NCBI RefSeq assembly: GCF_913055165.1
Contig: NZ_CAJXJS010000028.1
Span: 1-46,068 of the forward strand
DNA from: an uncultured Devosia sp.
Lineage (GTDB): Bacteria > Pseudomonadota > Alphaproteobacteria > Rhizobiales > Devosiaceae
DNA: 46,068 nt
Reading direction: 5' to 3'
A program made the translations under genes and the position numbers. Below, piece by piece: positions 9,928 to 27,377 of the stretch. Positions within the stretch are counted from its first letter, which is position 1. Each line of letters opens with the position of its first letter. Below the pieces are notes generated by a model. The model was given only the letters and a program-made list of their open reading frames with translations, searched no databases and had not been told where the DNA came from.

Positions 9928-9943
9928 AATCGACCCAGGGGGA

Positions 9944-11227
9944 ATGATGTCCGAATTTTCTGAACTCCGGCAAAAAGCCGGGCTTTCCGTTGCGGAAGCG
10001 GCTGCACATCTCGGCTACACAGAGCGGCAGTGCTACCGCTTCGAAGCAGGAGACGGGGAGCCCCGCAAGGCAGCCATGGAAGTTCTGAAGCTGCTTGTTC
10101 CGGCGAAGCAGGAGAACAGGAAGTCCGAATTCACGTTCATTGACCTTTTCGCTGGAATTGGCGGTCTGCGTCGGGGCTTTGACGCCATTGGCGGCAAGTG
10201 CGTTTTCACAAGCGAATGGGACAAGTTCAGCCAGCAGACCTACCGTGCCAATTATCCCGAAGATGACCACGAGATTGCCGGGGACATCACGAAGATTGAA
10301 GCTGCGGACATACCGGCGCATGACGTTCTGCTCGCCGGGTTTCCATGCCAGCCGTTCTCACTGGCTGGCGTATCCAAGAAGAACTCCCTTGGTCGCGCGC
10401 ATGGTTTCCAGTGCGAAATGCAGGGCACGTTGTTCTTTGATGTGGCGCGCATTCTCCAACACCACAGGCCAAAAGCGTTCCTCCTTGAGAACGTCAAGAA
10501 TCTTAAGAGCCACGATAAAGGCCGCACGTTTGACGTGATCATGAAAACGCTCACTGAAGACCTTGGCTACAAGGTTCAGACGCGCATCGTTGATGCCCGG
10601 CACTGGGTGCCGCAGCATCGCGAGCGTATTTTCATTGTTGGTTTCCGCGAAGACAGCGGCTTTGATTTTGATGACCTGCCAGTCCCGGACAAGGCCTTCG
10701 CGCCGAAGCTTGCATCCATCCTGCATCCCGAGAATGGCTCGGAAGGGGATGATCCCCGCTTCCTTGAAGGGCCGAAGGGAAAAGTTCAGGCGCGCTATAC
10801 GCTCTCCGATCATCTCTGGGGTTACCTCCAGGCTTATGCGGAAAAGCATCGGGCTGCAGGCAACGGCTTTGGCTTTGGTCTTGTCGGTCCCAATGACGTG
10901 GCCCGTACGCTTTCTGCGCGATACCACAAGGACGGCTCGGAAATCCTCATCAGCCAGAAGCGCAAGAACCCGCGCCGTCTGACGCCACGGGAATGTGCGC
11001 GCCTGATGGGGTTTGAACAGGTCGGTGACAAGCCGTTCAGCTTCGTGGTGTCCGATACGCAGGCCTATCGCCAGTTCGGAAACGCCGTTGTCGTGCCGGT
11101 CGTGGCAGCGATCGCGCGCCTTATGGAGCCCCATCTGGTGCAGAAGTCTTCTGGTGCCCCGGCCAAAAAGAAGGTCAGGGCGAGTGTTTCCGCGCAGGCT
11201 CAGGAAAAAGAGAGGGCCGTTGCCTGA
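9944..11227 (+). CDS. dcm: Dcm/M.EcoRII-type DNA cytosine-C5 methyltransferase with N-terminal HTH
   Basis: Methylates cytosine C5, very probably in CCWGG, judging from its close similarity to Dcm/M.EcoRII and its EcoRII endonuclease partner. Residues about 1-50 form a Cro/cI-type HTH ([19 protein letters not shown]). The methylase follows: motif [14 protein letters not shown], motif [22 protein letters not shown] with the catalytic Cys, motif [15 protein letters not shown], motif [19 protein letters not shown], motif [16 protein letters not shown] and motif [13 protein letters not shown] start at ATG 9944 (or 9947) because AGGGGG sits just ahead. In-frame starts at 9794 and 9920 lack a ribosome site, and 9920 lies inside the palindrome. 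The 3' end overlaps vsr by 8 bases. Confidence 0.95.
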
Positions 11228-11693
11228 TATCGTTGACCAGGCAACGCGCAGCCGGATGATGTCCGGCATTCGTGGGAAAAACACGAAGCCGGAGCTCGTC
11301 ATCCGCAAAGGTTTGCATGCAGCAGGATTCCGTTTCCGGCTGCATGCGAAGGATGTTCCAGGCAAGCCTGACATCGTGCTGCCACGCTACCGCGCGGCTA
11401 TTCTGGTCCATGGCTGTTTCTGGCATGGCCACAACTGCCATCTGTTTCGCCTGCCGGGCACCAGACAGGAATTCTGGCAGCAGAAAATCGAAGGCAACAG
11501 GCAGAGGGATACCCGCGTTCGCGACCAGCTGGACGCCACAGGCTGGCGTCACATGACGGTGTGGGAATGTGCGTTTCGTGACAGGCGCGGGCCGGGAGCC
11601 GCAGCGGTCATTTCAGACCTCGCACAGTGGCTTCGCAATCCGGAATCAGGACATGGTGAAATCAGTTCGCTGACGCTGGGGGGCGCCGCATGA
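11220..11693 (+). CDS. vsr: Vsr-type T:G mismatch endonuclease
   Basis: A 157-residue very-short-patch repair nuclease that nicks at T:G mismatches left by deamination of the methylase product. Visible family features are [20 protein letters not shown] at the N-terminus, catalytic Asp in PGKPDIVLP, the [14 protein letters not shown] zinc/active-site block, [13 protein letters not shown], and TVWECAFR. I chose the TTG start at 11220, which gives the same N-terminus and length as E. coli Vsr (156 aa) and has AGAGAGG ahead of it; a longer frame exists upstream inside dcm. Its stop overlaps the EcoRII start by ATGA, so dcm, vsr and the endonuclease are translationally linked. Confidence 0.93.
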
Positions 11694-12919
11694 AACAGGG
11701 GGCATTGTCAGACCACTTCGTCGGTGTCGGCGCCAAGGTATTACGCGGCACGGAAGTAGACCCGCAGGTCTCACACGGACATGAACTGCAGGGTATTACC
11801 CGGTTCCGGAAGTTTCTTGGCGAGAACGCGCAGAACGATGTCTTACCGGTGACCTATGTCTGGCTAAGTGACGAGGAGCCGCCGGTATCCCTGCCACTTT
11901 CTGCGACCTGGTATGACAGTCGCAGGAACGATCCCAACCGCGCTGCCGAATACCGCTTCTACTATCCCGCAGAAGCCGAAGAAGTTGTCTATAGGGCGAG
12001 GGCAGGCGACACGCTGATCCTCTGCCAGCCTGTGTCCGGTCCATTGCTGGCGCTCTTCTGTCCACGGGACAGCTCCATCGAGCAGCAGCTTCTCTGGCTC
12101 TTCGGTCTGGAACATCCGGAAGGCAATCTCCTGCGCGCACGCGACCTGCGCGATGATCCCAGCGAGACCGTGGGCTATATCGCCCGGCAGATACTGGAAT
12201 TCATCGGTGTCGAGGTTATTGCCACCGAAGAAAGCCTGCTTGAACTGATGCTGGCCCGCTTCGGCGAAGCCTTCCCGCCCACAAGAGAACTGTCTGCCTT
12301 CACATGGGAGCACGTCCAGGACATCGACGGACGCGATGACCCCGATGGGGCCATTGTGGCTCTGATGGATCTGGAAGAGCGACTGTTCATGACTCTCGAG
12401 CGTCACCTGGTCGGTAAACGCCTCGAGAACGGGTTCATGAGCGGTGGCAAGCCAGACGTAGATGAGTTTGTCCGGTTCTCCCTGTCCGTCCAGAACCGTC
12501 GCAAGTCACGGGCAGGCTGGGCATTTGGGAATCACGTTGAAGCCATCCTGAAATTGCACAATGTGCGCTTTTGTCGGGAAGCTACCACCGAGAAGAGAGC
12601 CGGCCCTGACTTCCTGTTTCCAGGCGAGGCCGAATACCATGATCCGGCGTGGCCGGACCTTCAGTTGACCATGCTTGCCGCAAAGACGTCATGCAAGGAT
12701 CGCTGGCGGCAGGTTCTGGCCGAGGCCAATCGTATTCGCAACAAGCACCTGCTGACACTTGAACCCGGTATTTCCCTTGCCCAGACCGAGGAAATGCGCC
12801 GGGAGAACCTTCAGCTTGTGCTGCCCACTGGGCTGCATGCAACGTACCGGCCAGAACAGCAGACCCAGCTGATGGGATTTAGTACCTTCATCAATCTGGT
12901 CCGGGACCGGCAGGCATGA
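11690..12919 (+). CDS. ecoRIIR: EcoRII-type type IIE restriction endonuclease
   Basis: A 409-residue homolog of R.EcoRII, which cuts ahead of CCWGG and needs a second site as an allosteric effector. The N-terminal effector DNA-binding domain (about 10-170) includes GITRFRKFLGENAQND and YPAEAEEVVYRARAGD. The C-terminal catalytic domain (about 260-405) includes SRAGWAFGNHVEAIL, GPDFLFPGEAEYHDPAWP, LTMLAAKTSCKDRWRQVL, KHLLTLEPGIS and LQLVLPTGLHATY. The PD...AAK arrangement and the CKDRWRQ segment match the EcoRII nuclease core. It is third in the dcm-vsr operon, and its stop overlaps the start of a 28-codon frame. Family and specificity class are strongly supported by the cognate methylase. Confidence 0.95.
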   Translation: MKQGALSDHFVGVGAKVLRGTEVDPQVSHGHELQGITRFRKFLGENAQNDVLPVTYVWLSDEEPPVSLPLSATWYDSRRNDPNRAAEYRFYYPAEAEEVVYRARAGDTLILCQPVSGPLLALFCPRDSSIEQQLLWLFGLEHPEGNLLRARDLRDDPSETVGYIARQILEFIGVEVIATEESLLELMLARFGEAFPPTRELSAFTWEHVQDIDGRDDPDGAIVALMDLEERLFMTLERHLVGKRLENGFMSGGKPDVDEFVRFSLSVQNRRKSRAGWAFGNHVEAILKLHNVRFCREATTEKRAGPDFLFPGEAEYHDPAWPDLQLTMLAAKTSCKDRWRQVLAEANRIRNKHLLTLEPGISLAQTEEMRRENLQLVLPTGLHATYRPEQQTQLMGFSTFINLVRDRQA

Positions 12920-13002
12920 TCGCCGATGAGCTACCCACAATGGCATTACGGAGACATCTGCGCCCGGGATATGGCGCGGAACGTGTATGTCAGCTGCCAT
13001 GA
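12916..13002 (+). CDS. 28-codon bridging ORF between EcoRII and the small nuclease
   Basis: A 28-codon frame whose ATG overlaps the EcoRII stop (ATGA, 12916-12919) and whose TGA overlaps an in-frame ATG of the next gene (ATGA, 12999-13002). The product (MIADELPTMALRRHLRPGYG... ending QLP) matches nothing I know. It may serve only to carry ribosomes across the gap (translational coupling) rather than to make a working peptide. The exact junctions at both ends make pure chance less likely. Confidence 0.35.
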   Translation: MIADELPTMALRRHLRPGYGAERVCQLP

Positions 13003-13451
13003 CTGCCGTTGATGTCACCGCAGACTGGTATTGGGAGGGCAATGTCGTCCGTGCACTGGCACAGTTTCTGTCAGAATCGGGATGGACAATCACCGGGCTC
13101 GCCGACACGCGCAGCAAAGCGCGCGGTGTCGATCTTGAAGCCACAAAGGCCGGTGAAACTCTGGTGGTAGAGGCGAAGGGTTATCCTTCCAGCCATTACC
13201 GCGATCCAAGAAAGGCTGCTGAAAAGAAATCGACCAATCCAGCGAGCCAAGCACAGCAATGGTATTCGCACGCTCTGCTCAAGGGAATGCGACTTCAGAA
13301 TCTTTACCCGGAAAGCAAGGTCGCTTTGGCCTTCCCCGATTTTCCGAGATATCGAACACTCTACGGTGAGACCGAGGGAGGGTTGCGCCAACTCGGAATA
13401 GGCCTGTTTTTTGTTCGGGAGAATGGAGAGGTCACACCGCTGGACATGTGA
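12987..13451 (+). CDS. PD-(D/E)XK nuclease-like protein appended to the R-M operon
   Basis: A 154-residue protein with a nuclease core: a helix (NVVRALAQFLSESGW), then RGVDLEATKAGETLVVEAKGYPSS, which supplies the Asp and the E-x-K of a PD-(D/E)XK active site, then SQAQQWYSHALLKGMRLQNLYP, VALAFPDFPRYRTL and a C-terminal strand GIGLFFVRENGEV. This resembles small Mrr/VSR-class restriction-like folds rather than a named enzyme. It is the last gene of the dcm-vsr-ecoRII operon. The internal ATG at 12999 is an alternative start. It converges with the 642-aa gene six bases later. Fold assignment is likely; its target (foreign DNA, or an accessory role to EcoRII) is unknown. Confidence 0.72.
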   Translation: MSAAMTAVDVTADWYWEGNVVRALAQFLSESGWTITGLADTRSKARGVDLEATKAGETLVVEAKGYPSSHYRDPRKAAEKKSTNPASQAQQWYSHALLKGMRLQNLYPESKVALAFPDFPRYRTLYGETEGGLRQLGIGLFFVRENGEVTPLDM

Positions 13452-13457
13452 CTGATT

Positions 13458-15386
13458 TTACTGCGCTGATGCTTTCACGCTGATGAATGAAGAGAGCGCA
13501 GCTTCTGCCCGCGACAGTGTCGCCCATAATGCTGGTTCAAGGGCGCAAAGCGCTTCGATCATTCCATGTAAATTGAGGGCCTGCGCCTTTTCCAGATCAC
13601 CAAAAGCCAACTCTGTAACCCATTCACCAAGAAATGCTCGCCACTCCCGGATGTCTTCGAAACCATTCGCAGCGATCAGGCAGATACGGAAAGACTGAAC
13701 GGGATTGATGTTGTCATCGCCCCGCAGGAGAGCAATTCTCGTCAGGACACGCACTTCTCTGGCCAGATCGCGACTTCTGGTCACCGCCGCCACCGTTGCA
13801 AGACCGCTTAGCATCGCGAAATGCTGTCCAGACTCCACATTTTCACGGATGCGGTACTTGGCATTCTTGATGACTTCAGCTGCCTGCTGGGCAAGTTCAA
13901 CAGGCGTGCGGAACACAAGGCAGGTGTTCACCAGCGCGTTGAATGCTGTCTGTTCGAGGGGGCTAACCGACAGGCTTTCACCCACCGCTTCCTGGATTTC
14001 TGCAGGTGCATCGACCATGAGGTCGAGACCGCCCTCCAGGGGGCCGGGGAGATAGGAGAACGGGAATTCGAACTGGTCAACCAGGCTGCCCTTTTCCCTG
14101 GACTTCAGGATCGGTTCCAGCGGTGTCCCGTCAATCGCCGCCGGATTGCGTTCGGCCGCACCGATAATGCGGCTCACCAGTTCTCTCTTCCATTGATGAG
14201 GATTTGCAAAGTCGGGGAGCCATCGCGGTTCTTTTCTTCCATCGATGGAATTCTGCAGATAAAAGGGTGTTCCGCGTCCGGACCTCACCCAGCTTTCCGT
14301 GTCGCCGGCGCGCAGGCCAGCCAGGATGAACTCCCTCTCGATTACTGAAGCCTGTGCGAGTGACGCAAGCCGTCTCCAGTACGGTGGTACGTCACGAAGG
14401 TCTCCTCCATGGGCAACCCCAGCATCTACAAAGACGAACAGGTTCGATAGCAGAAGCAGACGGCCTTCAGGGTCATCTGGATCGTCATCTCTTATCTGCT
14501 CGGCAATCGAAACCAGATCGACGGCCAATGCCGGATATTCCGGCAAATGGCGAAGCCCTAGTTCGAATGCAGACAGCTGCGAAATACGGTCGCCATATGC
14601 TGCGGCCCAATTGACCACACGCTCCAGTACTGCGCGATCAAGACCGTCCGGTAGTGACGGCACGAGACTGGCCTGCGATCCCAACAGCAGTGCCTGTTTC
14701 AGTCCGGCTCCTGCATTCCACTGCAGCAGCTCCGCCACATGTGCTTTCGCGGGACCCGCCGCGAAAGCCGTCACTGTGTCAGCATCTTTTGCAGAGCCTA
14801 CTAGTCGTTCATAGTAGGCCAGACCTCGCGGGACGAGCGTATCCGGGTGCGAGCTTCCATTCGACAGGCCGGAACGGATTCCAAACACATTCTGCGTCGG
14901 TGTTTTCTCCATGTCGTCATGGAGTTGCTCGATATCGTCATAGTCCACAGGGCCAGCGGTCAGAACTGCCCGCCAGTGGTCGAACTCTCGTCCCACAGCC
15001 CTGTTTTCGCTGAACATGCGATCAAGCATGGCTCGCCGGGTGGTATCATCGATTGCAACGAACCACAGTCCTTGCAGTGGTATCTCAAGCTCGCCCTTGA
15101 CCATTACGGGATAGCCCCGGCCAGAGTCCCAGCGGGCTTCCCATTCCGCGCCAGTCTTATCGAGGACCTTCTCCGGTGTTGACCCTTCCCTGAAGACGCG
15201 CCCGACAGCGCCCAGTGTTTCATTCCTGGAGAAGGGGACCGAACTTCCGGGGAAGTTTATGTCGCCGACACTTCGGAGCCCGTTGCGGACCCGGAAGTCG
15301 CGATCATGCAAAAGCTCATCCCGGATTGTCTTCGGGAAATATCGCATAAGCTCGAGCACAATTTCCTGGCCTTCCTCATTCAGCAT
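13458..15386 (-). CDS. Unrecognised 642-aa partner of the hydrolase-PIN protein
   Basis: I cannot place this protein in a family. The N-terminal about 130 residues look alpha/beta (EIVLELMRYFPKTIRDELL; EARWDSGRGYPVMVKGELEIPLQGLWFVAID). From about residue 200 it is dominated by helices, with LGLRHLPEYPALAVDLV, REFILAGLRAGDTESWV, and a C-terminal block of helical pairs (LARE VRVLTRIALLRG; FRICLIAANGFEDIREW). No signal peptide, membrane segment, P-loop or nuclease motif is evident. Its ATG lies upstream of the stop of the giant gene, overlapping it by 11 bases, so it must be co-translated with that gene. This suggests a stoichiometric partner, for example a sensor, inhibitor or scaffold. Confidence 0.65.
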   Translation of the reverse strand: MLNEEGQEIVLELMRYFPKTIRDELLHDRDFRVRNGLRSVGDINFPGSSVPFSRNETLGAVGRVFREGSTPEKVLDKTGAEWEARWDSGRGYPVMVKGELEIPLQGLWFVAIDDTTRRAMLDRMFSENRAVGREFDHWRAVLTAGPVDYDDIEQLHDDMEKTPTQNVFGIRSGLSNGSSHPDTLVPRGLAYYERLVGSAKDADTVTAFAAGPAKAHVAELLQWNAGAGLKQALLLGSQASLVPSLPDGLDRAVLERVVNWAAAYGDRISQLSAFELGLRHLPEYPALAVDLVSIAEQIRDDDPDDPEGRLLLLSNLFVFVDAGVAHGGDLRDVPPYWRRLASLAQASVIEREFILAGLRAGDTESWVRSGRGTPFYLQNSIDGRKEPRWLPDFANPHQWKRELVSRIIGAAERNPAAIDGTPLEPILKSREKGSLVDQFEFPFSYLPGPLEGGLDLMVDAPAEIQEAVGESLSVSPLEQTAFNALVNTCLVFRTPVELAQQAAEVIKNAKYRIRENVESGQHFAMLSGLATVAAVTRSRDLAREVRVLTRIALLRGDDNINPVQSFRICLIAANGFEDIREWRAFLGEWVTELAFGDLEKAQALNLHGMIEALCALEPALWATLSRAEAALSSFISVKASAQ

Positions 15387-18300
15387 CGCTTTCCTCCTCA
15401 GTCAGTCGTCGCGCCAGCTCTTCGATGTAGCTCCTTGTCTGCTCAGTCAGCCATGCCAGTGACGCAGGATCCTCTGACCGCAAGGCCCGCATCAGCGTGT
15501 CTTCCATCCAGGACGAATAGCGCCTCATTGTGTCACCGAACGCACCCAGTGGAATTGACAATGTAAGCCAGCAAAGCATCCGGAACCGATTGGTGATGGC
15601 GTCCCGGTCATTCGCCTGCTCAAAGCTGTGCGACCATCCCTGGAAGTGAATCAGTCCCAGCAGCCAGTCGGATCGGGCCCGTGCGGTCGCATCATCAACC
15701 TCACTATTCCACTGGGCCCTGACGCTTTCGCGAACGCTGGCCAGCAACTGCTCAAACCAGGGCTGGTCCAGGGGGATCTGCAAGGCATTGGTCATTCTCA
15801 GCCTTTCGATACTCTCACGTATCGATCTGAGATGAGCGTTTTCCTGTATCTCTCCATTCTGGATGCTGGCTGCGTTCACGAGCCGGACCAGCTCTTCCTG
15901 CCTGACGGGCATCATCTGGAAACCACCGCGGCGGAGACGGGTTTCTGACTCCGTGCGGTCCGAGGCGCTCAGCGCTCCTGAATTTTCAAGGATTGCCAGC
16001 AGATCGAGGCTGCATCCGATCGGAACGCTACGGCCCTCATGATCGATGTTGGCGTACTTATTCAGCGCCCGGTCATCGACGACCAGAAGATCAACCACGC
16101 CTGCGAGCGCAAAAACGCCAGCGGTCGGATGCCGGCCAATATTCGTCAATGTCAGTTCTTCATCGACCCCCTCGGGACCGACAATGACTCTGCCATCGGC
16201 GATTCCCTGTGCGAGGCTGGCCCTTACGGATTCAATATGCTCAAGGGTCGCATTGGCGTAGGACTCATGTCGTATCAGTGCGTCTACCCGCTCGGCATGG
16301 CCCTCAGAGAAGACGACCCTGTAGCCCGCTGTACCCAATGTTGACAGGAGTTCAAGGTGCTGGAGATATGACACCGCCAGATCATCCAGCAGCAGCGTCG
16401 CGCCAGGCTGTATGGTGGGAGCGTCAGGCCAAGGCAACTCATGAACGCGCAGATAGGAATTGGCACGACTCGCCTCTTCCGGAGTGATGTGCCCCTCCGC
16501 CAGCAGGGCGGTTATCACTTCGCTGCAGCCGCAGACCACATCGCCATAGGCGCTTAGGTCGGCGTTTTCGCGCATCAGTGTCGAAGGACGGTGAACCGGG
16601 CCCGGTCTGACCACCACAGTCTGCCTGCTGTCTTCCGTCCCCAGGCGGGCAGTCTCAAGCATGGCTGCCAGCTCTTCGCCAAATTCATCGACATCATCCA
16701 TGCCCGGCCTGACGACATCGCCCAGAATGGAGTATTCCGGCTGCGCAAGCAGGTTACGAAGCTCATGAGCATGCTGCACCTGTGTAGGCTGATGGAACTG
16801 AACCTTCTGACGCTCATCAAGCAGCCAGGCCAGTGTTGAATGCGGTATCACTGTTCTGCGGAAGCGCTCGAGGACCGTAGAGAGGCGGTCGATGAAGGAC
16901 AATGTCAGAAGTGAAGTAACCTCAAGAGCGATCGTTGTCTGGTCCGGAGTGATGTTGTCCCTTGCAGCGACGGCATTGGCGCTACTCATTCTCCCGCTAT
17001 AGTTCAGGAAAAGACTGCGACGCCGGGGATCTGCCTCGTCCAGGTTTGCAAGGGCCGGGGTCAGCAACATGCTGATTGTTGTGCGATTCAGTCTCCTTGC
17101 TGCAAGGAACAGGGGCATTTCACCTCTGGTGAGCTGTTCCCATACATCACTCTCTTGGCGCTCCCAGTCAGGACGCATGTCCATGAGGTCATCAAGGGAC
17201 ATCCGCTGGATAGGGCCGTCGTGCTGGTCTGTGCCTTCAATCGCCGTCTGCAGCCAGCCTGCGACCGTTTCATCATTTTCCCATCCGCCGGACACGGCAG
17301 CATGGTAGGCAGTTACTAGGACCTCAGGATCTGAGGGTTCTCTTGAGACGGCTTCGCGGATCAGGCTCTGACTTCGTCCCGACCCGATGGCCGCTGCGAT
17401 CTGGCCCGCCCGCAGGAGGTCTGGAGCTGTTCTTTCTTCTTTGTTCGTCCACGCACTTTCGACGAACGTAGCGAGTGCATCCCAGTCGCCTGACGTTATC
17501 GCGATGTTAATGAAAAGGGCTCTGGTATTCTCGTTGTCCTGTGTCGCAAGAAGCGATGCAAGTTCCTGCCGGGCGCGACGCAGTTCGCCCTGCCTGTACA
17601 GTGACCATGCGAGGATTCCCCGCAAAGTCTCCGAGCGTTGCAGGAAGTCGTTATGCTGGTCCAGAAATGCGATAACCGCGGGCCAGTCCTCAGACTCATA
17701 AGCGGCACGGGCATATGCGGTTGCACTTTTCAGGTCGTTCAGGCGCCCAAAAAGCTCGAGTGCATAGGGGGTCAGGCGACGCCATTCGTTCTGCTGTTGC
17801 AGGCGTCCAACGAGAGGCATCAGATCGTCCAGGCTATCACTAACCCGGAACCGCTCTTCGAGAGCGGAAACTGTGTCTTCACCTTGAATCCCTGATAGTT
17901 CAGCTTCAAGGGCACTTATGTCGAGTTCGCTCGCAGACCCACTGGATCGAAGAGCTTCAAGCCGCGTACGGGCTTCGGGGAGCCTGTCGGAGTCTGCAAG
18001 CGCCCGGATTTCGAAAGCGGATACGGCTGCGGCACTGACCACCCGTCCGAGACGTTCCCGGTTGTTGTCGATGAAATCTGCAACAGCGCCTTTGTCTTCA
18101 TCCCCCATCGCCAGCATGAAGCGCGCCATAAGGGCGTCGTTGGATGTGTCGCCTTCAGTAGACTCCACAACGGAGATGGCCTGATCGATGGCCGTTCTGT
18201 TCAGCGGCAGACCAAACTGGATGGCCATGGGAACGAGATGAACCATAACACCGGGGTCAGACATGCTTCGGGTCAGCTGTTGACGCGCTGCCATGGCTCC

Positions 18301-19980
18301 TTCCGGGTCACGCAGTGCCAGCCAGAGTGCAAAGTCTTCCGCTCCCCGACGTGCGTGCTCGCATCCAAGTTCGCCGGCTGCCCGCGCTACAGCTGAAAAA
18401 GCTTCCCGGGCCTGTCTGCGGTGCTCCAGAGAATCTGCATCCTCCTTCAGAGGGAATTGCGCCCAGTCAAAAGGAACATGGTCAATCAGCATGTCCTGTT
18501 TCTCAGCGGGAACTGCTGCCAGCATATGTGCCGTGGCCACGACATGCTGCAAAGGTGGGGAGTAATCCATATCTTCGACTGTTATGCGCTCTGCGTGTTC
18601 TAGCGCACGTGGGATATCGAGAGCCGCAATCAGGCGGCCCATATGGACAAACTTCCCGTCAGCATCCAGGTCATCAAACCGGAGGTCAGACTCATCGAGC
18701 CACAAGACCGTCTGCTCCGGTTCCAGATTTAAGGTAGCGACCAGGTATCTTGCAGAATGGCCCTGTGGGGTGTTGATCGAAGAAAGGCTTTCGATTGCAC
18801 CGGCTTTGTCCCCTCGTGCCGAGGCAATGAACGCACTCGCGATCAGAATTTCATCGCTGCTGGCGAGTCTCCGCGCTTCGCCCAACAGACGGTCGGCCTC
18901 ATTCACATCGATAGTCGACAGTATGCGTGAACTCCACGCAAGGGCGCTGGCTCGCGTCGCGGCAGAGCTATCCTGAAGTTCACCTTCAAGAATGTCACGT
19001 GCGAGCTGGCGGGCGTCTTCCACTGGATCAGAACCAACAAAGCGGCGGGACTTGCGCAGACGCGCAATCCTCTCCTGTGCGGTACGATCAATGATCGGGT
19101 TAAGAATTCTGCGGGCTGACACCGGACCTGAGCGACGAAGAAGCTCATCGAGTTTTTCGTCCATGTTCCCCAGTTGAGAAGCCTGCCGTGCATCCGCATG
19201 CTGACCTGTTGGTGCCTGGAGCACGAAATCCTTCAGAAGGACATACGTATCGGCCTCGCGGTCCGGTGGCTGGACGATTGTGTCATGATTGACATCGAGA
19301 AGAATGAACCTGGCCGGAGATGCCAGTCCAAGATCCGAGCTGTCCGTCTCTACGATTTTTCCCCACACTGTTCTCAGGGTTTCGCCCAGTCCGAGAACGT
19401 CGAGGCGGTGCCGGGTGACGTAGTCTCTGAACCAGGCATTCAGATCCCGCAAATGTGGGTTATTTCTGTTCAGCCCGCGCGTGGCATCGGTAGGTCTGAA
19501 AAGAGCACCGAGACTGACTGCGATCGAGGCCGTTGCAGAACCAAGGTGCGGCGTCGCGATAAACGCGGCTTTTCGTACCCGTCGCTCGAAATCGGCGGTC
19601 CGGGGATTGGTAGAAGACTGCCTTTCCGCGAGACGCAGCATTTCCTTGATGATCACGCCGCCCATACTGTAGCCGACAAGTATGATTTGTCCTCGGCCCA
19701 GTGCCTGTTCGACCAGGAGGCGTTCGAAAATACCAGTAGCACGGTCCTGCGTTGCCATCGCAATGCCGCCGCGCCACTTGACGCGATCGGCGGGGTAACC
19801 AATGCTCCAGACAGCAACGTCTGGCAGCTCTTCTTCGAGCCATGCGGGCCAGAACTCTGCTTCAGAACCCTCACCGGAGATCCATGTGTCTTCGACATCT
19901 CCTTTGAGCCCATGAATGAATATCACGTGAGTATTCACGTGTTCGAGCGTGGTTGTTGAAGGTCTCTTGATCTTGACCAA
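15376..19980 (-). CDS. Giant alpha/beta-hydrolase - helical repeat - PIN-like fusion protein
   Basis: About 1,534 residues. The N-terminal about 240 form a lipase/esterase-like hydrolase of the DUF676/SERAC1 kind: VIFIHGLKGD (oxyanion region), ILVGYSMGGVIIKEM (nucleophile Ser in G-x-S-x-G), FIATPHLGSATASI, and LLDVNHDTIVQP (candidate catalytic His). About 300-1000 are TPR-like helical repeats. Then come TIALEVTSLLTLSFIDRL...TVIPHSTL (about 1018), GATLLLDDLAVSYLQHLELL (about 1198) and VVDLLVVDDRALNKY (about 1302), which resemble the acidic elements of PIN nucleases of the TPR-GreAB-C-PIN class; the first acid is Glu. No P-loop is seen. I chose TTG 19980 because AAAGGAGG (19991-19998) precedes it by ten bases; GTG 20034 is the longer alternative. 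It heads a two-gene operon. A defence role is inference. Confidence 0.75.
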   Translation of the reverse strand: MVKIKRPSTTTLEHVNTHVIFIHGLKGDVEDTWISGEGSEAEFWPAWLEEELPDVAVWSIGYPADRVKWRGGIAMATQDRATGIFERLLVEQALGRGQIILVGYSMGGVIIKEMLRLAERQSSTNPRTADFERRVRKAAFIATPHLGSATASIAVSLGALFRPTDATRGLNRNNPHLRDLNAWFRDYVTRHRLDVLGLGETLRTVWGKIVETDSSDLGLASPARFILLDVNHDTIVQPPDREADTYVLLKDFVLQAPTGQHADARQASQLGNMDEKLDELLRRSGPVSARRILNPIIDRTAQERIARLRKSRRFVGSDPVEDARQLARDILEGELQDSSAATRASALAWSSRILSTIDVNEADRLLGEARRLASSDEILIASAFIASARGDKAGAIESLSSINTPQGHSARYLVATLNLEPEQTVLWLDESDLRFDDLDADGKFVHMGRLIAALDIPRALEHAERITVEDMDYSPPLQHVVATAHMLAAVPAEKQDMLIDHVPFDWAQFPLKEDADSLEHRRQAREAFSAVARAAGELGCEHARRGAEDFALWLALRDPEGAMAARQQLTRSMSDPGVMVHLVPMAIQFGLPLNRTAIDQAISVVESTEGDTSNDALMARFMLAMGDEDKGAVADFIDNNRERLGRVVSAAAVSAFEIRALADSDRLPEARTRLEALRSSGSASELDISALEAELSGIQGEDTVSALEERFRVSDSLDDLMPLVGRLQQQNEWRRLTPYALELFGRLNDLKSATAYARAAYESEDWPAVIAFLDQHNDFLQRSETLRGILAWSLYRQGELRRARQELASLLATQDNENTRALFINIAITSGDWDALATFVESAWTNKEERTAPDLLRAGQIAAAIGSGRSQSLIREAVSREPSDPEVLVTAYHAAVSGGWENDETVAGWLQTAIEGTDQHDGPIQRMSLDDLMDMRPDWERQESDVWEQLTRGEMPLFLAARRLNRTTISMLLTPALANLDEADPRRRSLFLNYSGRMSSANAVAARDNITPDQTTIALEVTSLLTLSFIDRLSTVLERFRRTVIPHSTLAWLLDERQKVQFHQPTQVQHAHELRNLLAQPEYSILGDVVRPGMDDVDEFGEELAAMLETARLGTEDSRQTVVVRPGPVHRPSTLMRENADLSAYGDVVCGCSEVITALLAEGHITPEEASRANSYLRVHELPWPDAPTIQPGATLLLDDLAVSYLQHLELLSTLGTAGYRVVFSEGHAERVDALIRHESYANATLEHIESVRASLAQGIADGRVIVGPEGVDEELTLTNIGRHPTAGVFALAGVVDLLVVDDRALNKYANIDHEGRSVPIGCSLDLLAILENSGALSASDRTESETRLRRGGFQMMPVRQEELVRLVNAASIQNGEIQENAHLRSIRESIERLRMTNALQIPLDQPWFEQLLASVRESVRAQWNSEVDDATARARSDWLLGLIHFQGWSHSFEQANDRDAITNRFRMLCWLTLSIPLGAFGDTMRRYSSWMEDTLMRALRSEDPASLAWLTEQTRSYIEELARRLTEEESDAE

Positions 19981-20289
19981 AACCGGGTAGCCTCCTTTCA
20001 AGCCATAGTAGACAGAAGGGACGCCGCGAACCACGCGAAATTCTCATTAACTCACTGGGAAAGACGGGATTTACATATTCTGAAACGCGAGCCTTTAAGG
20101 GTCGAGGCGAAGTGCGTGTTTACCCGTCAGCCTGAAACAAAGCGATTTAGCCTGGGGCGCATCCTTACGGACCGGGCTGTCGTGAACGGAGCCGGTTGAC
20201 CGTCTCCGCCATCCGGCATCCATCCCTTGCGCTGGAGTCTTTTTCGCGCGTCGACACGCACTGGTCTCCCGGGGCGCCGCCCCCGCGAC

Positions 20290-20400
20290 GATCAAGGGTG
20301 TCCCCGGTCTTCCTGCCGTGCAGACCGGGCGATCCCCCTCCCTTGATCCCCGCACCCCCGGTCTCGCCGACGGGCAGGGTTTCAGGGGGACCTGAACCCT
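20290..20400 (+). other. Highly structured intergenic segment, possible small RNA or DNA element
   Basis: The gap from 19981 to 20429 holds no supportable gene but contains nested inverted repeats. GATCAAGGG (20290-20298) pairs with CCCTTGATC (20340-20348). Inside it CCCGGTC (20303-20309) pairs with GACCGGG (20323-20329). A further hairpin (AGGGTTTCAGG with CCTGAACCCT, one bulge, 20376-20400) is followed by a pyrimidine-rich run. On the plus strand the arrangement looks like a structured transcript ending in a terminator. It could equally be a recombination or replication site. Confidence 0.4.
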
Positions 20401-20429
20401 TTCTCCATTCCTTTTCTTTCAGTCACTCC

Positions 20430-21296
20430 CTACAGCTTCGGGGCACCCGCGCCCTGTGACCTCTGGCCCGCCGCCAGTTCCTGCAACTCCCTTTGCGCCG
20501 CATTATCCCGCGCATTGGCAGACTCGAACCGCGCGGCATCAATCACGAACATCTTCATCGAGCCCACAATATCCGGGTTGTTGCGGCCATTCTCATAGCC
20601 GGGGCCAATTTCGATCCGCAGATACACATCACACCGGTCCTGCGGGTTGTAGACATTGAGATTGTTCTCGGCCGCCCGGAAGGTCAGCTGGCGCAATGTG
20701 TTGAGGTCATGGCCGTTGCGGGGCTGGAAGGTGCGCAATGCATTCAGGGACGGGCAAATCACGCCATCGCCGGTTTTTGCCGCGCCATCGAGGAATCCAT
20801 ACTCAATCACCCGCGCAGAATTCTCCCGGAATTCTCCACTGTCGCTGCCCGGCGGTCCGTATTTGTCGATGATGGCCTGTAGTGTGGCGTCAGCATTCGG
20901 ATACTCGCTGCCATAGCGCACATCCCGGAACAGCGTGACCAGCTGGTTGCCACTGCCATTGGTCGAGAACACCGCGTAGACATCATCATAGGTCTCGGTG
21001 CGCATCATGCCGCTCGGTCCAATGCCAAGAATGAACGGCGTATCGGCAAACTCCAGCGAGGCTTCCACCACATAGGGCGGATTGGCACCCTGCGCTGCGT
21101 AGAATTCCTGTGCAGTTGCGAAGGCTTCGTCGGCAGGCTGGCCGGGATAGAACCCGGCCACATCCATCGTCTGTCCATCCGGCAGACCGACACCAATGTC
21201 CATCACCTCCACACTCACAGGAAACACGGGCTGGGCAAGGGCAGAGGGCGCAGCCCCCATCATCACCGCAAGCGCGGCGGATCGTACAAGCTTCAT
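20430..21296 (-). CDS. Exported hypothetical protein, 288 aa
   Basis: A 288-residue protein with a clear signal peptide (MKLVRSAALAVMMGAAPSALA, cleavage after ALA near residue 21). The mature part begins QPVFPVSVEVMDIGVGLP and includes DVAGFYPGQPADEAFATAQEF, DVYAVFSTNGSGNQLVTLFRDV and YGFLDGAAKTGDGVICPSLNAL. The C-terminus is polar (NAAQRELQELAAGQRS). I do not recognise a family. GGGAG precedes the ATG by about eight bases. It lies 12 bases after the lipoprotein gene, so the two are one unit. An envelope role in the host of the island is likely, but nothing shows what it does. Confidence 0.7.
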   Translation of the reverse strand: MKLVRSAALAVMMGAAPSALAQPVFPVSVEVMDIGVGLPDGQTMDVAGFYPGQPADEAFATAQEFYAAQGANPPYVVEASLEFADTPFILGIGPSGMMRTETYDDVYAVFSTNGSGNQLVTLFRDVRYGSEYPNADATLQAIIDKYGPPGSDSGEFRENSARVIEYGFLDGAAKTGDGVICPSLNALRTFQPRNGHDLNTLRQLTFRAAENNLNVYNPQDRCDVYLRIEIGPGYENGRNNPDIVGSMKMFVIDAARFESANARDNAAQRELQELAAGQRSQGAGAPKL

Positions 21297-21308
21297 CGTC
21301 TCTCTCCC

Positions 21309-21647
21309 TTACCGCACCTGTTCCATCTGCCAGCCATCGGCATTGAAAAACCGGGCCTTGCTCCACTGGCCGGTCTGGCGCTGGCCGCCCACCGTGGCGT
21401 TCACCCGGAAATCGCAGACAAAGCCGGGCTGGTTCTGCGCCTCCATGCAGCTGCCTTTCTCCACTTCCGATGCGTCGAGCATCTGGCTTGCCGTCACGCT
21501 GGCCCCGCCCGTCTGAGCCAGCATCTGCATCTGGGCCATCACCATCTGGTTGTTGCGGATGGCCTGCTTCATGTCATTGCCGCCCGGTTCCCCGGAGCAG
21601 GCAGCCAAGGTGACGGCCACGCCCGCAATCAGCGCGGCGCGCATCAT
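21309..21647 (-). CDS. Small putative lipoprotein, 112 aa
   Basis: Signal peptide type II: MMRAALIAGVAVTLAAC, with Cys17 as the lipid attachment site, followed by SGEPGG. The mature part has MKQAIRNNQMVMAQMQMLAQ (helix), then SCMEAQNQPGFVCDFRVNATVGG, with a cysteine pair likely to form a disulfide in the periplasm, and ends SKARFFNADGWQMEQVR. I start at ATG 21647 because AGGA lies six bases ahead; an in-frame TTG at 21665 lacks this. It is upstream of, and probably co-transcribed with, the exported 288-residue gene. The family is unknown, although small disulfide-bearing lipoproteins of this size are common in envelope stress or entry-exclusion-like roles. Confidence 0.68.
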   Translation of the reverse strand: MMRAALIAGVAVTLAACSGEPGGNDMKQAIRNNQMVMAQMQMLAQTGGASVTASQMLDASEVEKGSCMEAQNQPGFVCDFRVNATVGGQRQTGQWSKARFFNADGWQMEQVR

Positions 21648-21690
21648 CAGAATTCCTGTGTTCAAAGATTGTCTCCCTCAAAGACGAAAA

Positions 21691-21715
21691 CGCGGAAGCC
21701 GTTAAAGCTTCCGCG
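21691..21715 (-). terminator. Intrinsic terminator of the 53-aa gene
   Basis: CGCGGAAGC / GCTTCCGCG, a perfect 9-bp stem with a 7-base loop, followed on the minus strand by TTTTCGTCTTT. Confidence 0.75.
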
Positions 21716-21732
21716 CGCGTGATGCTTTGCCG

Positions 21733-21894
21733 TTACCGGCGTTCCTGTTGCTGCTGGCGTTGCCGCTCGATCTCGGAATTGATGATCTCAGCGGTGCGAT
21801 AATCTCCCACCTGGTGCGGCTCGACCTTCTGAAGGTTCGGGTTCTGCTGGAACTGCTCCTGGACGTTCCGGCGGGTGGCTTCTTCGTGCGACAT
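21733..21894 (-). CDS. Small hydrophilic hypothetical protein, 53 aa
   Basis: A 53-residue, glutamine- and glutamate-rich soluble protein: MSHEEATRRNVQEQFQQNP, then HQVGDYRTAEIINSEIERQ and a QQQQERR tail. It is probably mostly helical. I use ATG 21894 because GGGAG stands six bases upstream; a longer frame from 21927 lacks a ribosome site. It has its own terminator 18 bases after the stop, so it is a single-gene unit. The family is unknown. Confidence 0.6.
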   Translation of the reverse strand: MSHEEATRRNVQEQFQQNPNLQKVEPHQVGDYRTAEIINSEIERQRQQQQERR

Positions 21895-21951
21895 GACTTT
21901 CTCCCAGTGCGCATGAATACGGGTCACCGGAAGGGCATCAGGAAGCGTCAG

Positions 21952-22107
21952 ACAGAATGTCCTATTCTGTTTAAGCTCCTGATTTAGCTTTGAATCTTAT
22001 TGTTGACTCAATCCCGTGCTGTTATCTTCCAATCGGAAGGCGGTCCGGAACCTGTTGTAATCTGCGGGTTGCAGCGGTGAAGGCGGAAGCCCGAACAGAA
22101 TAGGACA
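21952..22107. repeat. Palindrome plus 13-bp inverted repeats upstream of the tyrosine recombinase
   Basis: ACAGAAT-gtcct-ATTCTGT (21952-21970) is a perfect palindrome. Its right part, TGTCCTATTCTGT (21958-21970), recurs inverted as ACAGAATAGGACA at 22095-22107. The pair brackets about 125 bases in front of the recombinase gene. It is a candidate recombinase or regulator binding site. Confidence 0.45.
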
Positions 22108-22152
22108 GAGTGTCGTGTATTCCCGGTGGCGAGGACGCCGGAAACAGACGAC

Positions 22153-22782
22153 ATGAGCCTGCGTTTTACCCCACAACCATCACTCCGCGCCCCGGATGGC
22201 AGGCGCAAATATCTCACGCCCGATGAGCGGCAACGCTTCATTGAAACGGCCTGGACATGGCCTGATCCATCAGTCGGGACGCTATGCCTGCTGCTGGCTT
22301 ATTCCGGCTGCAGAATCTCCGAAGCACTGGCGCTGGCAGCAGCGGGCATTGATCACGGGGAGCGCTGCATCGCGTTCCGCTCCCTCAAGAAGCGCGGTGC
22401 TGTCGTCATCCGCACCGTGCCACTGCCGGATGATGTGATTGCGCGGTTTCTGGTGATGATACCTTCTGGTGACGCACGTCTCTGGCCCATCTCCCGCAGT
22501 ACCGCCTGGCAGCGGATAAAGTCCGTCATGCAGGCCGCTGGCATCGGGCAGGGCATTCACGCCACGCCCAAGGGCCTTCGGCATGGTTTTGGCATCCACG
22601 CCATCCGAAGTGGCGTCCCCCTCAATCTCGTCCAGCGCTGGCTCGGTCATGCCGATATCGCCACAACGGCCATCTACACGGATGCGCTGGGCGCGGAGGA
22701 ACGGGAATTCGCGGGCAGGATGTGGGGCGAATCTCAGTCGATCAGATCGGAGTCACTGTCCGATCCGGGTCCAGCCCCGTAG
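22153..22782 (+). CDS. Catalytic-domain-only tyrosine recombinase, 209 aa
   Basis: Phage-integrase/Xer-type site-specific recombinase made almost entirely of the catalytic domain. Active-site segments: Arg in YSGCRISEAL (about residue 53), LRHGFG with the second Arg and His (about 142; the usual first His of this motif is Lys), LGHADIATTAIYTD with the second His and nucleophile Tyr (about 174). The core-binding SAM-like N-terminal domain of full integrases is missing; only about 25 residues precede LTPDERQRFIE. I use ATG 22153; a GTG at 22126 is possible. It converges with and overlaps the 117-aa gene by 49 bases. It could resolve dimers or move the element, or be an accessory to the serine recombinase. 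Confidence 0.87.
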   Translation: MSLRFTPQPSLRAPDGRRKYLTPDERQRFIETAWTWPDPSVGTLCLLLAYSGCRISEALALAAAGIDHGERCIAFRSLKKRGAVVIRTVPLPDDVIARFLVMIPSGDARLWPISRSTAWQRIKSVMQAAGIGQGIHATPKGLRHGFGIHAIRSGVPLNLVQRWLGHADIATTAIYTDALGAEEREFAGRMWGESQSIRSESLSDPGPAP

Positions 22783-23087
22783 TACCGGGCGGCATTCCTC
22801 ATCGCCTCGGACTTCCCGTTGTTCGCTTTCATCTCCAGGAGCGCATTGCTCAGGCCCACCGCAATCCGGCGTGCCTCTCCCTCATGCAGTTCCCCGCCAA
22901 CATTCACGGCCATGCCATCATTCATCACTAGACGGACGCCGCGTACCCATTGAAGGGAACTGGCCGTCGGATTGGGACCGACCTCGATCGTGTTGATATC
23001 CGTCTGCCGGTATTCAAGAGTCCGCGCATCCGGCTTTTTTGGAATGCCAGCGGGAACACTGATCGAGCCATCCTGTTCAAACACCAC
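22734..23087 (-). CDS. Hypothetical protein, 117 aa, third in the coupling-protein operon
   Basis: A GTG-started frame (23087, or GTG 23084): MVFEQDGSISVPAGIPKKPD, then RQTDINTIEVGPNP, LQWVRGVRLVMNDGMAVNVGGE and a helical end LSNALLEMKANNGKSEAMRNAARYYG. It is soluble with no known family. It lies in the same frame as the upstream 85-aa gene, nine sense codons after that gene's TAG, and has no clear ribosome site of its own, so translation may depend on the gene before. Its 3' 49 bases overlap the tyrosine recombinase gene on the other strand. Confidence 0.55.
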   Translation of the reverse strand: MVFEQDGSISVPAGIPKKPDARTLEYRQTDINTIEVGPNPTASSLQWVRGVRLVMNDGMAVNVGGELHEGEARRIAVGLSNALLEMKANNGKSEAMRNAARYYGAGPGSDSDSDLID

Positions 23088-23114
23088 CGAACGCTGTGGC
23101 AGCGCCCCGAAAAC

Positions 23115-23372
23115 CTATCTGGCAAAGAACAGCGCAAATCCCCCGAAGGCAAGGGCACCAAAAACGCCAATCCCGCCAGCGCCTCCGGCAGCTGCCATCA
23201 GACTGGCGAGCGCTGCCAGCAGCGCCAGGACAAACATGACGCCCATCAGAACCCCGTTGGTGCCACCGCGTATGCCCGCAGACTCTGTCCAGCGCATGCC
23301 CGCTTTCTGCAGCTTTCCCGCCGCATCAGCCTCACGGATTGGCTCACAGCTGAAAGTCCTGCTCATGCTCAT
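23115..23372 (-). CDS. Small two-helix membrane protein, 85 aa
   Basis: After a polar start (MSMSRTFSCEPIREADAAGKL) there are two adjacent hydrophobic helices: GVLMGVMFVLALLAALASLM and GGIGVFGALAFGGFALFF, split by AAAGGAG. The start overlaps the coupling-protein stop by ATGA. It may anchor or assist the coupling protein, which itself has no membrane segments. This is inference from position only. Confidence 0.6.
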   Translation of the reverse strand: MSMSRTFSCEPIREADAAGKLQKAGMRWTESAGIRGGTNGVLMGVMFVLALLAALASLMAAAGGAGGIGVFGALAFGGFALFFAR

Positions 23373-24802
23373 GCACCTTCCGTGTCTGGTTTGAGGCGTT
23401 CAAGGAAAAGGGGCGGACGCCCCGGTGACAGGATCAGCTGCCGACCCGTTTCACGGGCAAGGAAATATCCGACCTCGGCAGCATCCAGCAGCGGCACCGT
23501 CCGGAACTGGGTGCGCTCGCCGGTATCGCCACGCTGCTGGCCGCTCTCACCCACAGTATCGAAGCGGGTCTCCAGAATGGTGGTCTGGCCAATCAGCTTT
23601 GAAAGATACTCCGTTGTGGTCGCATCGACATTGGACCAGGCTTGGAGAATCCCGGCATTGCCCAGGAACGTCTCCCAGGAATTCGGATAATGGGTCTTGA
23701 GCTGCGTAAGGTCCTGCAGCACCACCCACAGCTTGCAGCCCATGCCTGCCATAAAGCCCGCGGCGGTCTCGATAGAGCGCAGATTGCCAAGCGCTGCAAA
23801 CTCTTCCAGTACCAGCCAGATCGGCAATGCTCCGGCCCGCAACCCTCTCACCGGCTTCTGTTCAATAGCCGTAATGGTCAGGTTGATCATCAGCCGCAGC
23901 CACTTTGCATGCGTGGCAAGTCGGGACGCCGGCAGCACCAGGTAGACTGTCATCGGCTTCTCGCTGAGCGACGACAGGTAGAAATCATGCCCGTCCGAAA
24001 CATGCGTGACATCATCCAGAGGCCAGGTCTGCTCGTTCGCGGTCGACATGATCGACTGAAGTTCACGGGATGGCTGTCCGTTTTCCAGCTTGGCACGAAA
24101 CGCCCGACCGGTATTGGCGACAATACCATCAAAGACGTCGTTTCCTGCCATGTCCTCGATCAGGCCAATCAGTTCCTCCGTATCGGACGAGAGATATTCG
24201 CGCAGCTTCCCGAGCCTGGCCTCCAGTGGGTCCTCCAGCAGATGCAGCACCAGCCCACGGATGAAGTTGCGCGCAGCGTCTGTCCAGTGCGTCTCACTAT
24301 TGCCGACATGCACGATCAGAGCATCCGCAATCAGTGCGGCATTGGCAGGCTTGAGGTGATCCGGTGCCTCTGTCAGCTCACTGAATGGATTGTACGATGA
24401 GCAGAATTCCCGGCATTTCTCCGAGGTGATCCTGAATGGATCCAGAATATGAACGTCACCAAAGCGCCTGCGCGCATGCGCCGTGGTCTCCGCAAGTTCT
24501 CCCTTGGGATCAATAACAACGACCGATCCGGGATAGCGCCTGAGATTTGGCACCAGTACCGTGCTGGACTTTCCTGCACGTGTGCCTGCGATGGTGACAA
24601 TATGGCGGTCGTCACCCGAGCCCGCCGGAAAACCTTCTGCATCCGGATCGCCGATTTCCCGGCCTTCATGAGAGCCGAGCAGAATCTTTCGCCCCGAATA
24701 GTCCCATCGCGCGCTGAGCTTTGAGGCATTGCCCCAGCGCCGGTCAGGCGCAGTCTCACCAGCATCAGGACCAAATCCGCGTGGCGGGAATTGCTGTGCC
24801 AT
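23369..24802 (-). CDS. TraG/VirD4-type coupling ATPase lacking membrane anchor
   Basis: A 477-residue type IV coupling protein that would bring the relaxase-DNA complex to a conjugation channel. Walker A is IAGTRAGKSST (about 72), followed by VIDPKGELAETTAHARR. Walker B is WLVLEEFAALG (about 334), and KLWVVLQDLTQLKTHY and AWSNVDATTTEYLSKLIG follow, as in the TraG/TraD/VirD4 family. Family members normally begin with two membrane helices; this one starts directly with a soluble PDRRWGNASKLSARW segment, so it is of the short, soluble type. GGGGGA precedes the ATG. It forms an operon with the two-helix membrane protein and the 117-aa protein. No VirB/Trb channel genes are in the island. Confidence 0.9.
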   Translation of the reverse strand: MAQQFPPRGFGPDAGETAPDRRWGNASKLSARWDYSGRKILLGSHEGREIGDPDAEGFPAGSGDDRHIVTIAGTRAGKSSTVLVPNLRRYPGSVVVIDPKGELAETTAHARRRFGDVHILDPFRITSEKCREFCSSYNPFSELTEAPDHLKPANAALIADALIVHVGNSETHWTDAARNFIRGLVLHLLEDPLEARLGKLREYLSSDTEELIGLIEDMAGNDVFDGIVANTGRAFRAKLENGQPSRELQSIMSTANEQTWPLDDVTHVSDGHDFYLSSLSEKPMTVYLVLPASRLATHAKWLRLMINLTITAIEQKPVRGLRAGALPIWLVLEEFAALGNLRSIETAAGFMAGMGCKLWVVLQDLTQLKTHYPNSWETFLGNAGILQAWSNVDATTTEYLSKLIGQTTILETRFDTVGESGQQRGDTGERTQFRTVPLLDAAEVGYFLARETGRQLILSPGRPPLFLERLKPDTEGA

Positions 24803-27375: not shown

Positions 27376-27377
27376 GA

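What the first reader, a model, noticed from the sequence alone, without database searches (positions are those of the whole stretch)
15376..19980. Hydrolase - helical repeat - PIN-like giant protein with an unknown 642-aa partner: candidate undescribed defence system
One polypeptide of about 1,534 residues combines a lipase-like N-terminus (G-x-S-x-G and His present), a long TPR-like middle and C-terminal PIN-like elements, in an island otherwise loaded with restriction and kinase-like cargo. The partner gene overlaps by 11 bases. Two potential effectors (lipid or ester hydrolysis and RNA cleavage) around a repeat scaffold, without a P-loop, differs from the NLR/Avs-type arrangement. PIN modules linked to TPR proteins are known in predicted counter-invader systems (TPR-GreAB-C-PIN), but I do not know this three-part fusion with this partner.
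Basis: partly seen in the sequence, partly recalled or inferred. Interest (0 to 1): 0.9.

Follow-up and report, generated by a model that had tools for sequence, protein, structure and literature searches.

The report
Split lipase–PIN–Gre-like defence pair
Two overlapping genes on a mobile DNA island encode what in relatives is a single giant protein, in which a predicted lipase-like enzyme is attached to a scaffold with a predicted RNA-cutting domain; the pair is likely a little-known variant of a bacterial immune system that, as far as found here, has only been predicted.

Summary
A frame of 1,552 codons (1,534 from the likely start at 19980) joins an α/β-hydrolase, a TPR scaffold, an HTH and a tandem PIN region, and overlaps a 642-aa gene by 11 bases.

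The "unknown partner" is the other half of the same unit. In 54 of 56 genome loci it lies directly downstream (46) or is fused in frame (8); the other two end at a contig edge. Relatives of the partner carry Pfam's Permuted_GreAB-C domain, though this partner itself does not match it.

The pair is a split version of a sister type of the predicted TPR–GreA/B-C–PIN conflict system (Kaur et al. 2021, PMC8195603). The N-terminal part is exchangeable (hydrolase, HNH-like, SMEK, PNP, metallophosphatase or short), with at least 13 changes on a quick tree. Hydrolase Ser/Glu/His are identical in 17 of 17 loci; PIN2 keeps four acids in 56 of 58 rows; PIN1 lacks the DDR acids and is likely inactive.

The operon sits in a 25.3-kb integrative element at tRNA-Met; relatives lie beside defence genes. 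Function is predicted, not shown. New variant of a known kind.

The parts
15376..20034 (-). Gene A, effector-TPR-HTH-double-PIN protein; likely translation start at 19980 (1,534 aa)
19210..19926 (-). N-terminal alpha/beta-hydrolase (residues 37-275); S123, E218, H250 identical in 17 of 17 hydrolase-type loci (own included; L007 and L008 are near-copies)
   Evidence: Pfam DUF676 residues 37-177; PADLOC DUF626_VIII residues 37-275; alignment
17200..19017 (-). TPR/helical repeat scaffold (about residues 340-945)
   Evidence: for residues 760-945; residues 340-760 only by weak Pfam matches here and TPR matches in relatives, over the cut-off in L054
16990..17196 (-). HTH_upst_double_PIN (PF24407; residues 947-1015)
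16423..16944 (-). PIN1 (about residues 1031-1204), likely inactive duplicate: acids at 1038 and 1074, none where PIN2 has DDR
   Evidence: PF20698 matches below its cut-off at the same position in L015, L054, L057, P0177
15955..16422 (-). PIN2 (about residues 1205-1360; PF20698 at 1215-1329): D1217, D1320, D1321, D1344; likely RNase
15379..15954 (-). C-terminal, mostly helical region of gene A (residues 1361-1552)
15376..15386 (-). 11-base gene overlap, probable translational coupling (46 of 46 split loci have both genes on one strand, distance -134 to +109 bases)
13458..15386 (-). Gene B, 642 aa: small beta-rich domain then helical repeats
15051..15275 (-). Permuted-GreAB-C-like domain of gene B (residues 38-112), assigned only through relatives
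   Evidence: not confirmed by my own profile test
2479..2555 (+). tRNA-Met, left edge of the integrative element that carries the operon
2556..27825 (.). Integrative element: in two sibling genomes the bases right after the tRNA match the window from 27826 on (96-98% over 43-46 bases)

Best explanation
The two genes encode the two halves of one unit (effector-TPR-HTH-double-PIN plus a predicted Gre-like half), in which an exchangeable alpha/beta-hydrolase is likely a cell-killing effector that would be released when the rest of the complex senses transcription hijacked by a phage. Shown: the two halves go together (adjacent or fused), the N-terminal position is swappable, the hydrolase catalytic residues and the PIN2 acids are conserved, PIN1 lacks the DDR acids, and the operon rides a mobile element with restriction genes. 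Inferred: the two proteins form a complex; the Gre-like half docks on RNA polymerase or its transcript; PIN2 cuts RNA there; a change passed through the TPR scaffold activates the hydrolase, which would attack membrane lipid or another ester and stop or kill the infected cell.
For: A and B are fused in 8 and adjacent on the same strand in 46 of 56 genome loci; in the other 2 the contig ends 63-267 bases after A. Relatives of B carry PF24388 Permuted_GreAB-C (44 of 120 listed by precomputed labels; of ten re-scanned, nine of them picked for that label, nine match, six over the cut-off). Among 51 readable N-termini (own included): 17 hydrolase, 7 HNH_2-like (5 over the cut-off), 3 SMEK, 1 PNP, 1 metallophosphatase, 1 weak Mrr (E 0.025), 3 of one unassigned type, 10 short, 8 unassigned; at least 13 changes among the assigned classes on the core tree, 'short' counted as a class. 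Hydrolase S123/E218/H250 17 of 17. PIN2 four acids 56 of 58. Neighbours: 111 PADLOC families hit at 1e-10 in 149 neighbours against 6 in 146 control genes. Sporadic: 3 of 75 genomes of the genus, the other two copies 38-39% identical to this one. Kaur et al. 2021 (PMC8195603, section 7 read) predict RNAP association and effector release for the related system.
Against: No experiment exists here. Gene B itself does not match PF24388 at E <= 1, and its residues 38-112 show no profile similarity to 30 genuine GreA/GreB C-domains, single or tandem-duplicated (scores 10.6 and 10.3; controls up to 13.0), so RNA-polymerase docking is weakly founded. The structure searches gave no PIN match because TPR hits filled the lists. 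Neither PIN profile matches a VapC-type set, and the PIN1-PIN2 comparison has a modest hhalign probability (15%, 58%) despite its score. The hydrolase substrate is unknown.
Confidence: 0.5

Rival explanations
1. Defence system of the same architecture, but triggered by something other than transcription complexes: B and the HTH/PIN core would bind phage RNA or a phage protein directly, and PIN2 is a sensor-processing rather than a killing nuclease; the hydrolase is still the effector.
For: The GreAB-C relation of this B is not confirmed by my profile test; B is mostly helical repeat; the N-terminal part is exchangeable.
Against: Pfam classifies the domain in B's relatives as GreAB-C; B is kept, fused or adjacent, in 54 of 56 loci, which fits either reading.
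Confidence: 0.3
2. Toxin-antitoxin-like pair: A is a toxic PIN/hydrolase protein and B a neutralising partner, kept mainly to stabilise the mobile element.
For: Two overlapping genes on an integrative element with relaxase and coupling-protein genes; PIN domains are typical toxins (general knowledge).
Against: In 8 of 56 loci A and B are one frame, unusual for a labile antitoxin; B is large and follows A; N-terminal parts are swapped while B stays.
Confidence: 0.12
3. Housekeeping RNA-processing or stress-response protein of the host, not defence.
For: Some neighbours are housekeeping genes (for example ThiC and ribonucleotide reductase, once each).
Against: 3 of 75 genomes of the genus carry the core and 4 of 299 of a phylum sample carry PF24407; it lies inside a 25-kb insertion missing at the same site in two siblings; PADLOC enrichment of neighbours.
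Confidence: 0.05

Closest known systems
TPR-GreA/B-C-PIN conflict system (Kaur et al. 2021, eLife, PMC8195603; section 7 read, passages)
   Same: TPR core, PIN of family PF20698, Gre-like domain in the relatives, variable N-terminal effector
   Different: In the paper the order is TPR, GreA/B-C, PIN, mostly as standalone genes. Here it is TPR, HTH, PIN, PIN, then the Gre-like domain in a second gene. Section 7 does not name alpha/beta-hydrolase among the effectors of this system, but it names only some of the 13; figure 2K and the source data were not seen.
Pfam PF24407 (HTH_upst_double_PIN) and PF24388 (Permuted_GreAB-C)
   Same: Gene A matches PF24407 with 81.7 bits; relatives of B match PF24388
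   Different: Domain entries, known here by name only; I found no description of the two-gene operon or its effectors in print (searches; open-licence papers only)
PADLOC DUF626_VIII
   Same: Hydrolase residues 37-275, E 2.1e-19
   Different: No reverse transcriptase family among the window ORFs scanned. That this model stands for the type VIII retron effector is recalled; a search did not confirm it.
DS-3 and DS-5 PIN systems (DefensePredictor, PMC13092281; passages seen)
   Same: PIN RNase needed for phage defence; [quoted passage not shown]
   Different: The passages describe no TPR-hydrolase fusion; homology not tested

Membership tests
TPR-GreA/B-C-PIN system (Kaur et al. 2021) | TPR repeats in the constant core | tested here: met
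TPR-GreA/B-C-PIN system (Kaur et al. 2021) | PIN domain of the system (PF20698) | tested here: met
   30.1 bits, cut-off 27.8, residues 1215-1329
TPR-GreA/B-C-PIN system (Kaur et al. 2021) | GreA/B-C domain | tested here: inconclusive
   Relatives of B match PF24388; own B does not; profile test against GreA-C negative
TPR-GreA/B-C-PIN system (Kaur et al. 2021) | Order TPR, GreA/B-C, PIN on one polypeptide | tested here: not met
   Order is TPR, HTH, PIN, PIN, Gre-like; the last is in a second gene here and after the PINs in the fused relatives P0142 and P0177
TPR-GreA/B-C-PIN system (Kaur et al. 2021) | Standalone gene (said of most members) | tested here: not met
   Gene B lies next to A here and in 46 of 56 loci
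TPR-GreA/B-C-PIN system (Kaur et al. 2021) | Variable N-terminal effector | tested here: met
Double-PIN / permuted-GreAB-C type (PF24407 + PF24388) | HTH directly before two PIN domains | tested here: met
   PF24407 81.7 bits and PF20698 at PIN2. PIN1 is weaker: PF20698 at the PIN1 position only below the cut-off and only in relatives; PIN1-PIN2 profile score 25.9-29.6 over 140-144 columns against controls up to 14.6, probability 15-58%
Double-PIN / permuted-GreAB-C type (PF24407 + PF24388) | Permuted GreAB-C, fused or adjacent | tested here: inconclusive
   B adjacent or fused in 54 of 56, but own B is below Pfam detection
NLR/Avs (STAND NTPase) systems | P-loop NTPase domain | tested here: not met
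   No NTPase family in either protein at E <= 1
Type VIII retron (feature recalled) | Reverse transcriptase gene next to the hydrolase | tested here: not met
   None among 18 other window ORFs scanned, the nearest sizeable neighbours on both sides included; small ORFs were not scanned
Any antiphage defence system | Lowers phage plating | not testable with these tools
   needs an experiment

The most novel reading that the evidence does not exclude
A two-protein sensor of the transcribing RNA polymerase, built from a permuted Gre-like domain and a pseudo-PIN/active-PIN pair, that switches on an interchangeable lipase to destroy the membrane of phage-infected cells: transcription surveillance wired to membrane killing.
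Probability: 0.2. Interest if true: 0.85.

Novelty: new variant of a known kind. Interest (0 to 1): 0.5.

Why it matters
In the papers I could search I found no experimental test of the TPR-GreA/B-C-PIN systems. This operon gives a compact, separable test case: two genes, a hydrolase with a clear Ser/Glu/His set, one likely active and one likely dead PIN, and natural relatives whose N-terminal part has changed at least 13 times on the tree. It lets one ask directly whether bacteria watch transcription itself as a sign of infection, and whether a single sensor can drive unrelated killing enzymes.

Tried and rejected
No PIN entry was listed for the A model, which excludes nothing.

VapC comparison: PIN1 and PIN2 profiles do not match 25 VapC-type PINs from relatives. 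The first run was faulty for the VapC rows because loci on the minus strand had not been turned; those rows are discarded, its PIN1-PIN2 row (a different alignment setting) is not affected.

GreA test: residues 38-112 of B against 30 GreA/GreB C-domains, single and tandem, gave no signal over controls. A profile of those 30 found no hit at E <= 10 in A, B, the L125 fragment or the 185 fetched homologues (no positive control was run in that call). The PIN2 profile hits the PIN1 position in 12 of 64 proteins with an HTH hit, but only with chance-level scores.

PF24388 scans of genomes gave nothing; the model is short and the tool says this does not show absence. Viral contigs and phages: no relative. 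Promoter scan uninformative. No 14-base repeat of the tRNA region was found elsewhere in the window.

"Retron effector", "NLR-like" and plain toxin-antitoxin readings were considered and ranked lower.

Neighbour test limits: 149 of 279 neighbours (nearest first, open-ended ones dropped) were scanned; the control is 146 genes from 20 stretches of two genomes of the window's genus, not matched to the loci's taxa; the PADLOC counts are families (only the first 25 of 111 were listed), not independent genes.

Dropped rows: six loci (L016, L025, L028, L043, L054, L056) were left out of the effector count because the alignment to the core began too late or A was incomplete. Twenty N-termini were scanned with Pfam one by one besides the own one; the other class members were assigned by clustering. 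L045 and L049 cluster with the HNH/SMEK group but were not scanned and are counted as unassigned. Alignment A1 uses 57 of the 65 proteins plus the query fragment. The tree is a quick one with 17 of 47 inner branches open.

Full report
Observation. The giant ORF (15376-20034, minus strand) and the 642-aa ORF (13458-15386) are real and overlap by 11 bases. Homologue starts favour 19980 as the start of the first. Pfam gives DUF676 hydrolase, HTH_upst_double_PIN and PIN-TPR-GreABC in that order, all over their cut-offs, and no NTPase. An AlphaFold model of residues 760-1552 (58-row alignment, pLDDT 89.3) shows TPR-like helices followed by two successive alpha/beta regions with a PIN-like order of strands and helices, then a helical tail. 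The partner model (80 rows, pLDDT 89.9) has a small beta-rich domain (strands between 72 and 103) and is otherwise helical.

The partner. The partner alone has no Pfam match at E <= 1. A search found 191 proteins; 44 of the 120 listed carry PF24388, Permuted_GreAB-C, as a precomputed label. Re-scanning ten of them, nine chosen because labelled, gave the match in nine at about residues 48-100, six over the cut-off. Comparing the partner with the 65 proteins found with the giant core showed five of 2,011-2,075 aa with nearly the whole partner directly C-terminal of the core, and four more with weaker or partial matches. In 56 genome loci found with the core alignment, the partner is adjacent on the same strand in 46 and fused in 8 (in L026 the contig ends inside it; in L048 and L055 only part of it aligns); two loci end at a contig edge. 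Fusion state changes at least six times on the core tree. The two genes are therefore two halves of one functional unit.

The two PINs. Profiles of the two alpha/beta regions resemble each other over 140-144 columns (score 25.9, 29.6; the highest of six control pairs was 14.6), though the hhalign probability is only 15% and 58%. PF20698 matches the second position best in gene A, L032 and P0142; it matches the first position, below its cut-off, in L054, L057 and P0177, and both positions in L015. In PIN2, D1217, D1320, D1321 and D1344 are all acidic in 56 of 58 rows, and D1320-D1321-R1322 are invariant. In PIN1 an acid at 1038 is kept in 58 of 58 and E1074 is E in 53 of 58, but the residues aligned with DDR are R1143-P1144-G1145 (R in 51 of 58), with no conserved acid. 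I infer one likely active and one likely inactive PIN.

The effector. Among 51 loci with a readable N-terminus (own included), 17 have the hydrolase; others have HNH_2-like (7, five over the cut-off), SMEK (3), nucleoside-phosphorylase (1), metallophosphatase (1) or weakly Mrr-like (1) domains, an unassigned type shared by 3, other unassigned domains (8), or only a short leader (10). The tree of the cores needs at least 13 changes among the assigned classes (quick tree, 17 of 47 inner branches open; the labels are still more clustered than in shuffles). In the hydrolase class S123 of the G-x-S-x-G, E218 and H250 are identical in 17 of 17, so the enzyme is likely active; that E218 is the triad acid is inferred. 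PADLOC's only match is DUF626_VIII.

Setting. The operon lies in an integrative element. A tRNA-Met (2479-2555) is followed by a serine recombinase, a GHKL-ATPase protein, a Dcm-Vsr-EcoRII-type set, the operon, an integrase, a coupling protein and a relaxase. Eight sibling copies of the tRNA site were compared. In two (L167, L168) the 43-46 bases right after the tRNA match the window from 27826 on at 96-98%, and the window's right-flank gene (28038-29465) follows within 0.4-0.9 kb at 93-94% protein identity: the element spans 2556-27825, 25,270 bases. In L170 another right-flank gene of the window follows, in L169 another serine recombinase, and in L171-L174 nothing like the window. The island has 52-61% G+C per kilobase; from 30,001 on the whole kilobases have 61-67%. 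The genus is inferred to be Devosia: the same-genus match G003 lies on a contig of the same length (262,171 bases) as L046 (Devosia sp.), and G596 on one nearly as long as that of L027 (Devosia rhodophyticola). Only 3 of 75 genomes of the genus carry the core, the other two 38-39% identical to this one, and 4 of 299 genomes of a phylum sample (own included) carry PF24407. Five plasmid records hold relatives; an Agrobacterium fabrum conjugative plasmid has a two-gene operon beside an integrase, a type I restriction gene and a SIR2 gene.

Neighbours. Of 149 nearest neighbours scanned (of 279), PADLOC families at E <= 1e-10 numbered 111; those listed include SduA (Shedu, recalled), HmaC, AbiEii, type I and IV restriction enzymes and type II methylases. 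146 control genes gave 6 families. Pfam on the same neighbours shows 6 phage integrases and also single housekeeping genes. The control is not matched in taxonomy and the counts are families, so this is strong but rough.

Relation to what is known. Kaur et al. 2021 describe a predicted system with a constant core of TPR, GreA/B-C and PIN and 13 kinds of N-terminal effector, mostly standalone genes, and propose that it acts on RNA polymerase hijacked by viruses (section read). L125, from a genome in the phylum of a cyanobacterium, matches PF20698 with 96 bits in a single PIN after TPRs, with only a weak HTH match and no GreA family hit (800 residues of a longer frame). The window's type differs in domain order, in a tandem PIN, and in the Gre-like domain lying after the PINs and in the second gene. 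Two giant cyanobacterial plasmid proteins of 2,125-2,130 aa seem to have this same order on one chain (PF24407 over cut-off, PIN and GreAB-C matches below it). So it works like, and is homologous in its PIN to, the published system, but is a sister variant rather than a plain member.

Limits. The Gre-like nature of this B rests on Pfam matches of relatives and was not confirmed by my profile test against genuine GreA domains. PIN fold evidence is from profiles, acids and predicted secondary structure. RNA polymerase sensing, RNA cutting, lipid hydrolysis and phage defence are all untested. The hydrolase subtype and the two-gene form were not found in the papers I could search; the figure and source data of the 2021 paper, which may show them, were not available.

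Noticed in passing
window 2479-27825: Integrative mobilisable element of 25,270 bases in tRNA-Met; empty site seen in L167 and L168, another serine recombinase at the same tRNA in L169, so the site looks like an integration hotspot.
   Followed up: partly
window 6181-9710: Two-gene unit: 720-aa protein with two GHKL/HATPase regions (weak BbrUII-family similarity, NCBIfam) and a 456-aa protein without a Pfam family; candidate further defence pair.
   Followed up: no
window 9794-12919: Dcm-type methylase, Vsr and an EcoRII-C restriction enzyme in a row.
   Followed up: no
window 12987-13451: 154-aa protein with weak UPF0102/Hjc similarity (nuclease-like), convergent with the operon.
   Followed up: no
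L006, L009, L019, L024, L037, L038, L051: Members with only about 41-87 residues before the core, similar to each other there, instead of an effector domain; perhaps they recruit a separate effector.
   Followed up: no
L012 and L029: Sister cores, one with the hydrolase (L029) and one with almost no N-terminus (L012): effector loss or exchange.
   Followed up: no
L017, L026, L053: Unassigned 310-aa N-terminal type shared by three loci and nested among hydrolase types; no Pfam family over its cut-off (only L017 scanned).
   Followed up: partly
L027:12238-12348: In Devosia rhodophyticola gene A ends early relative to the alignment and B follows 109 bases later; possibly a decayed copy.
   Followed up: no
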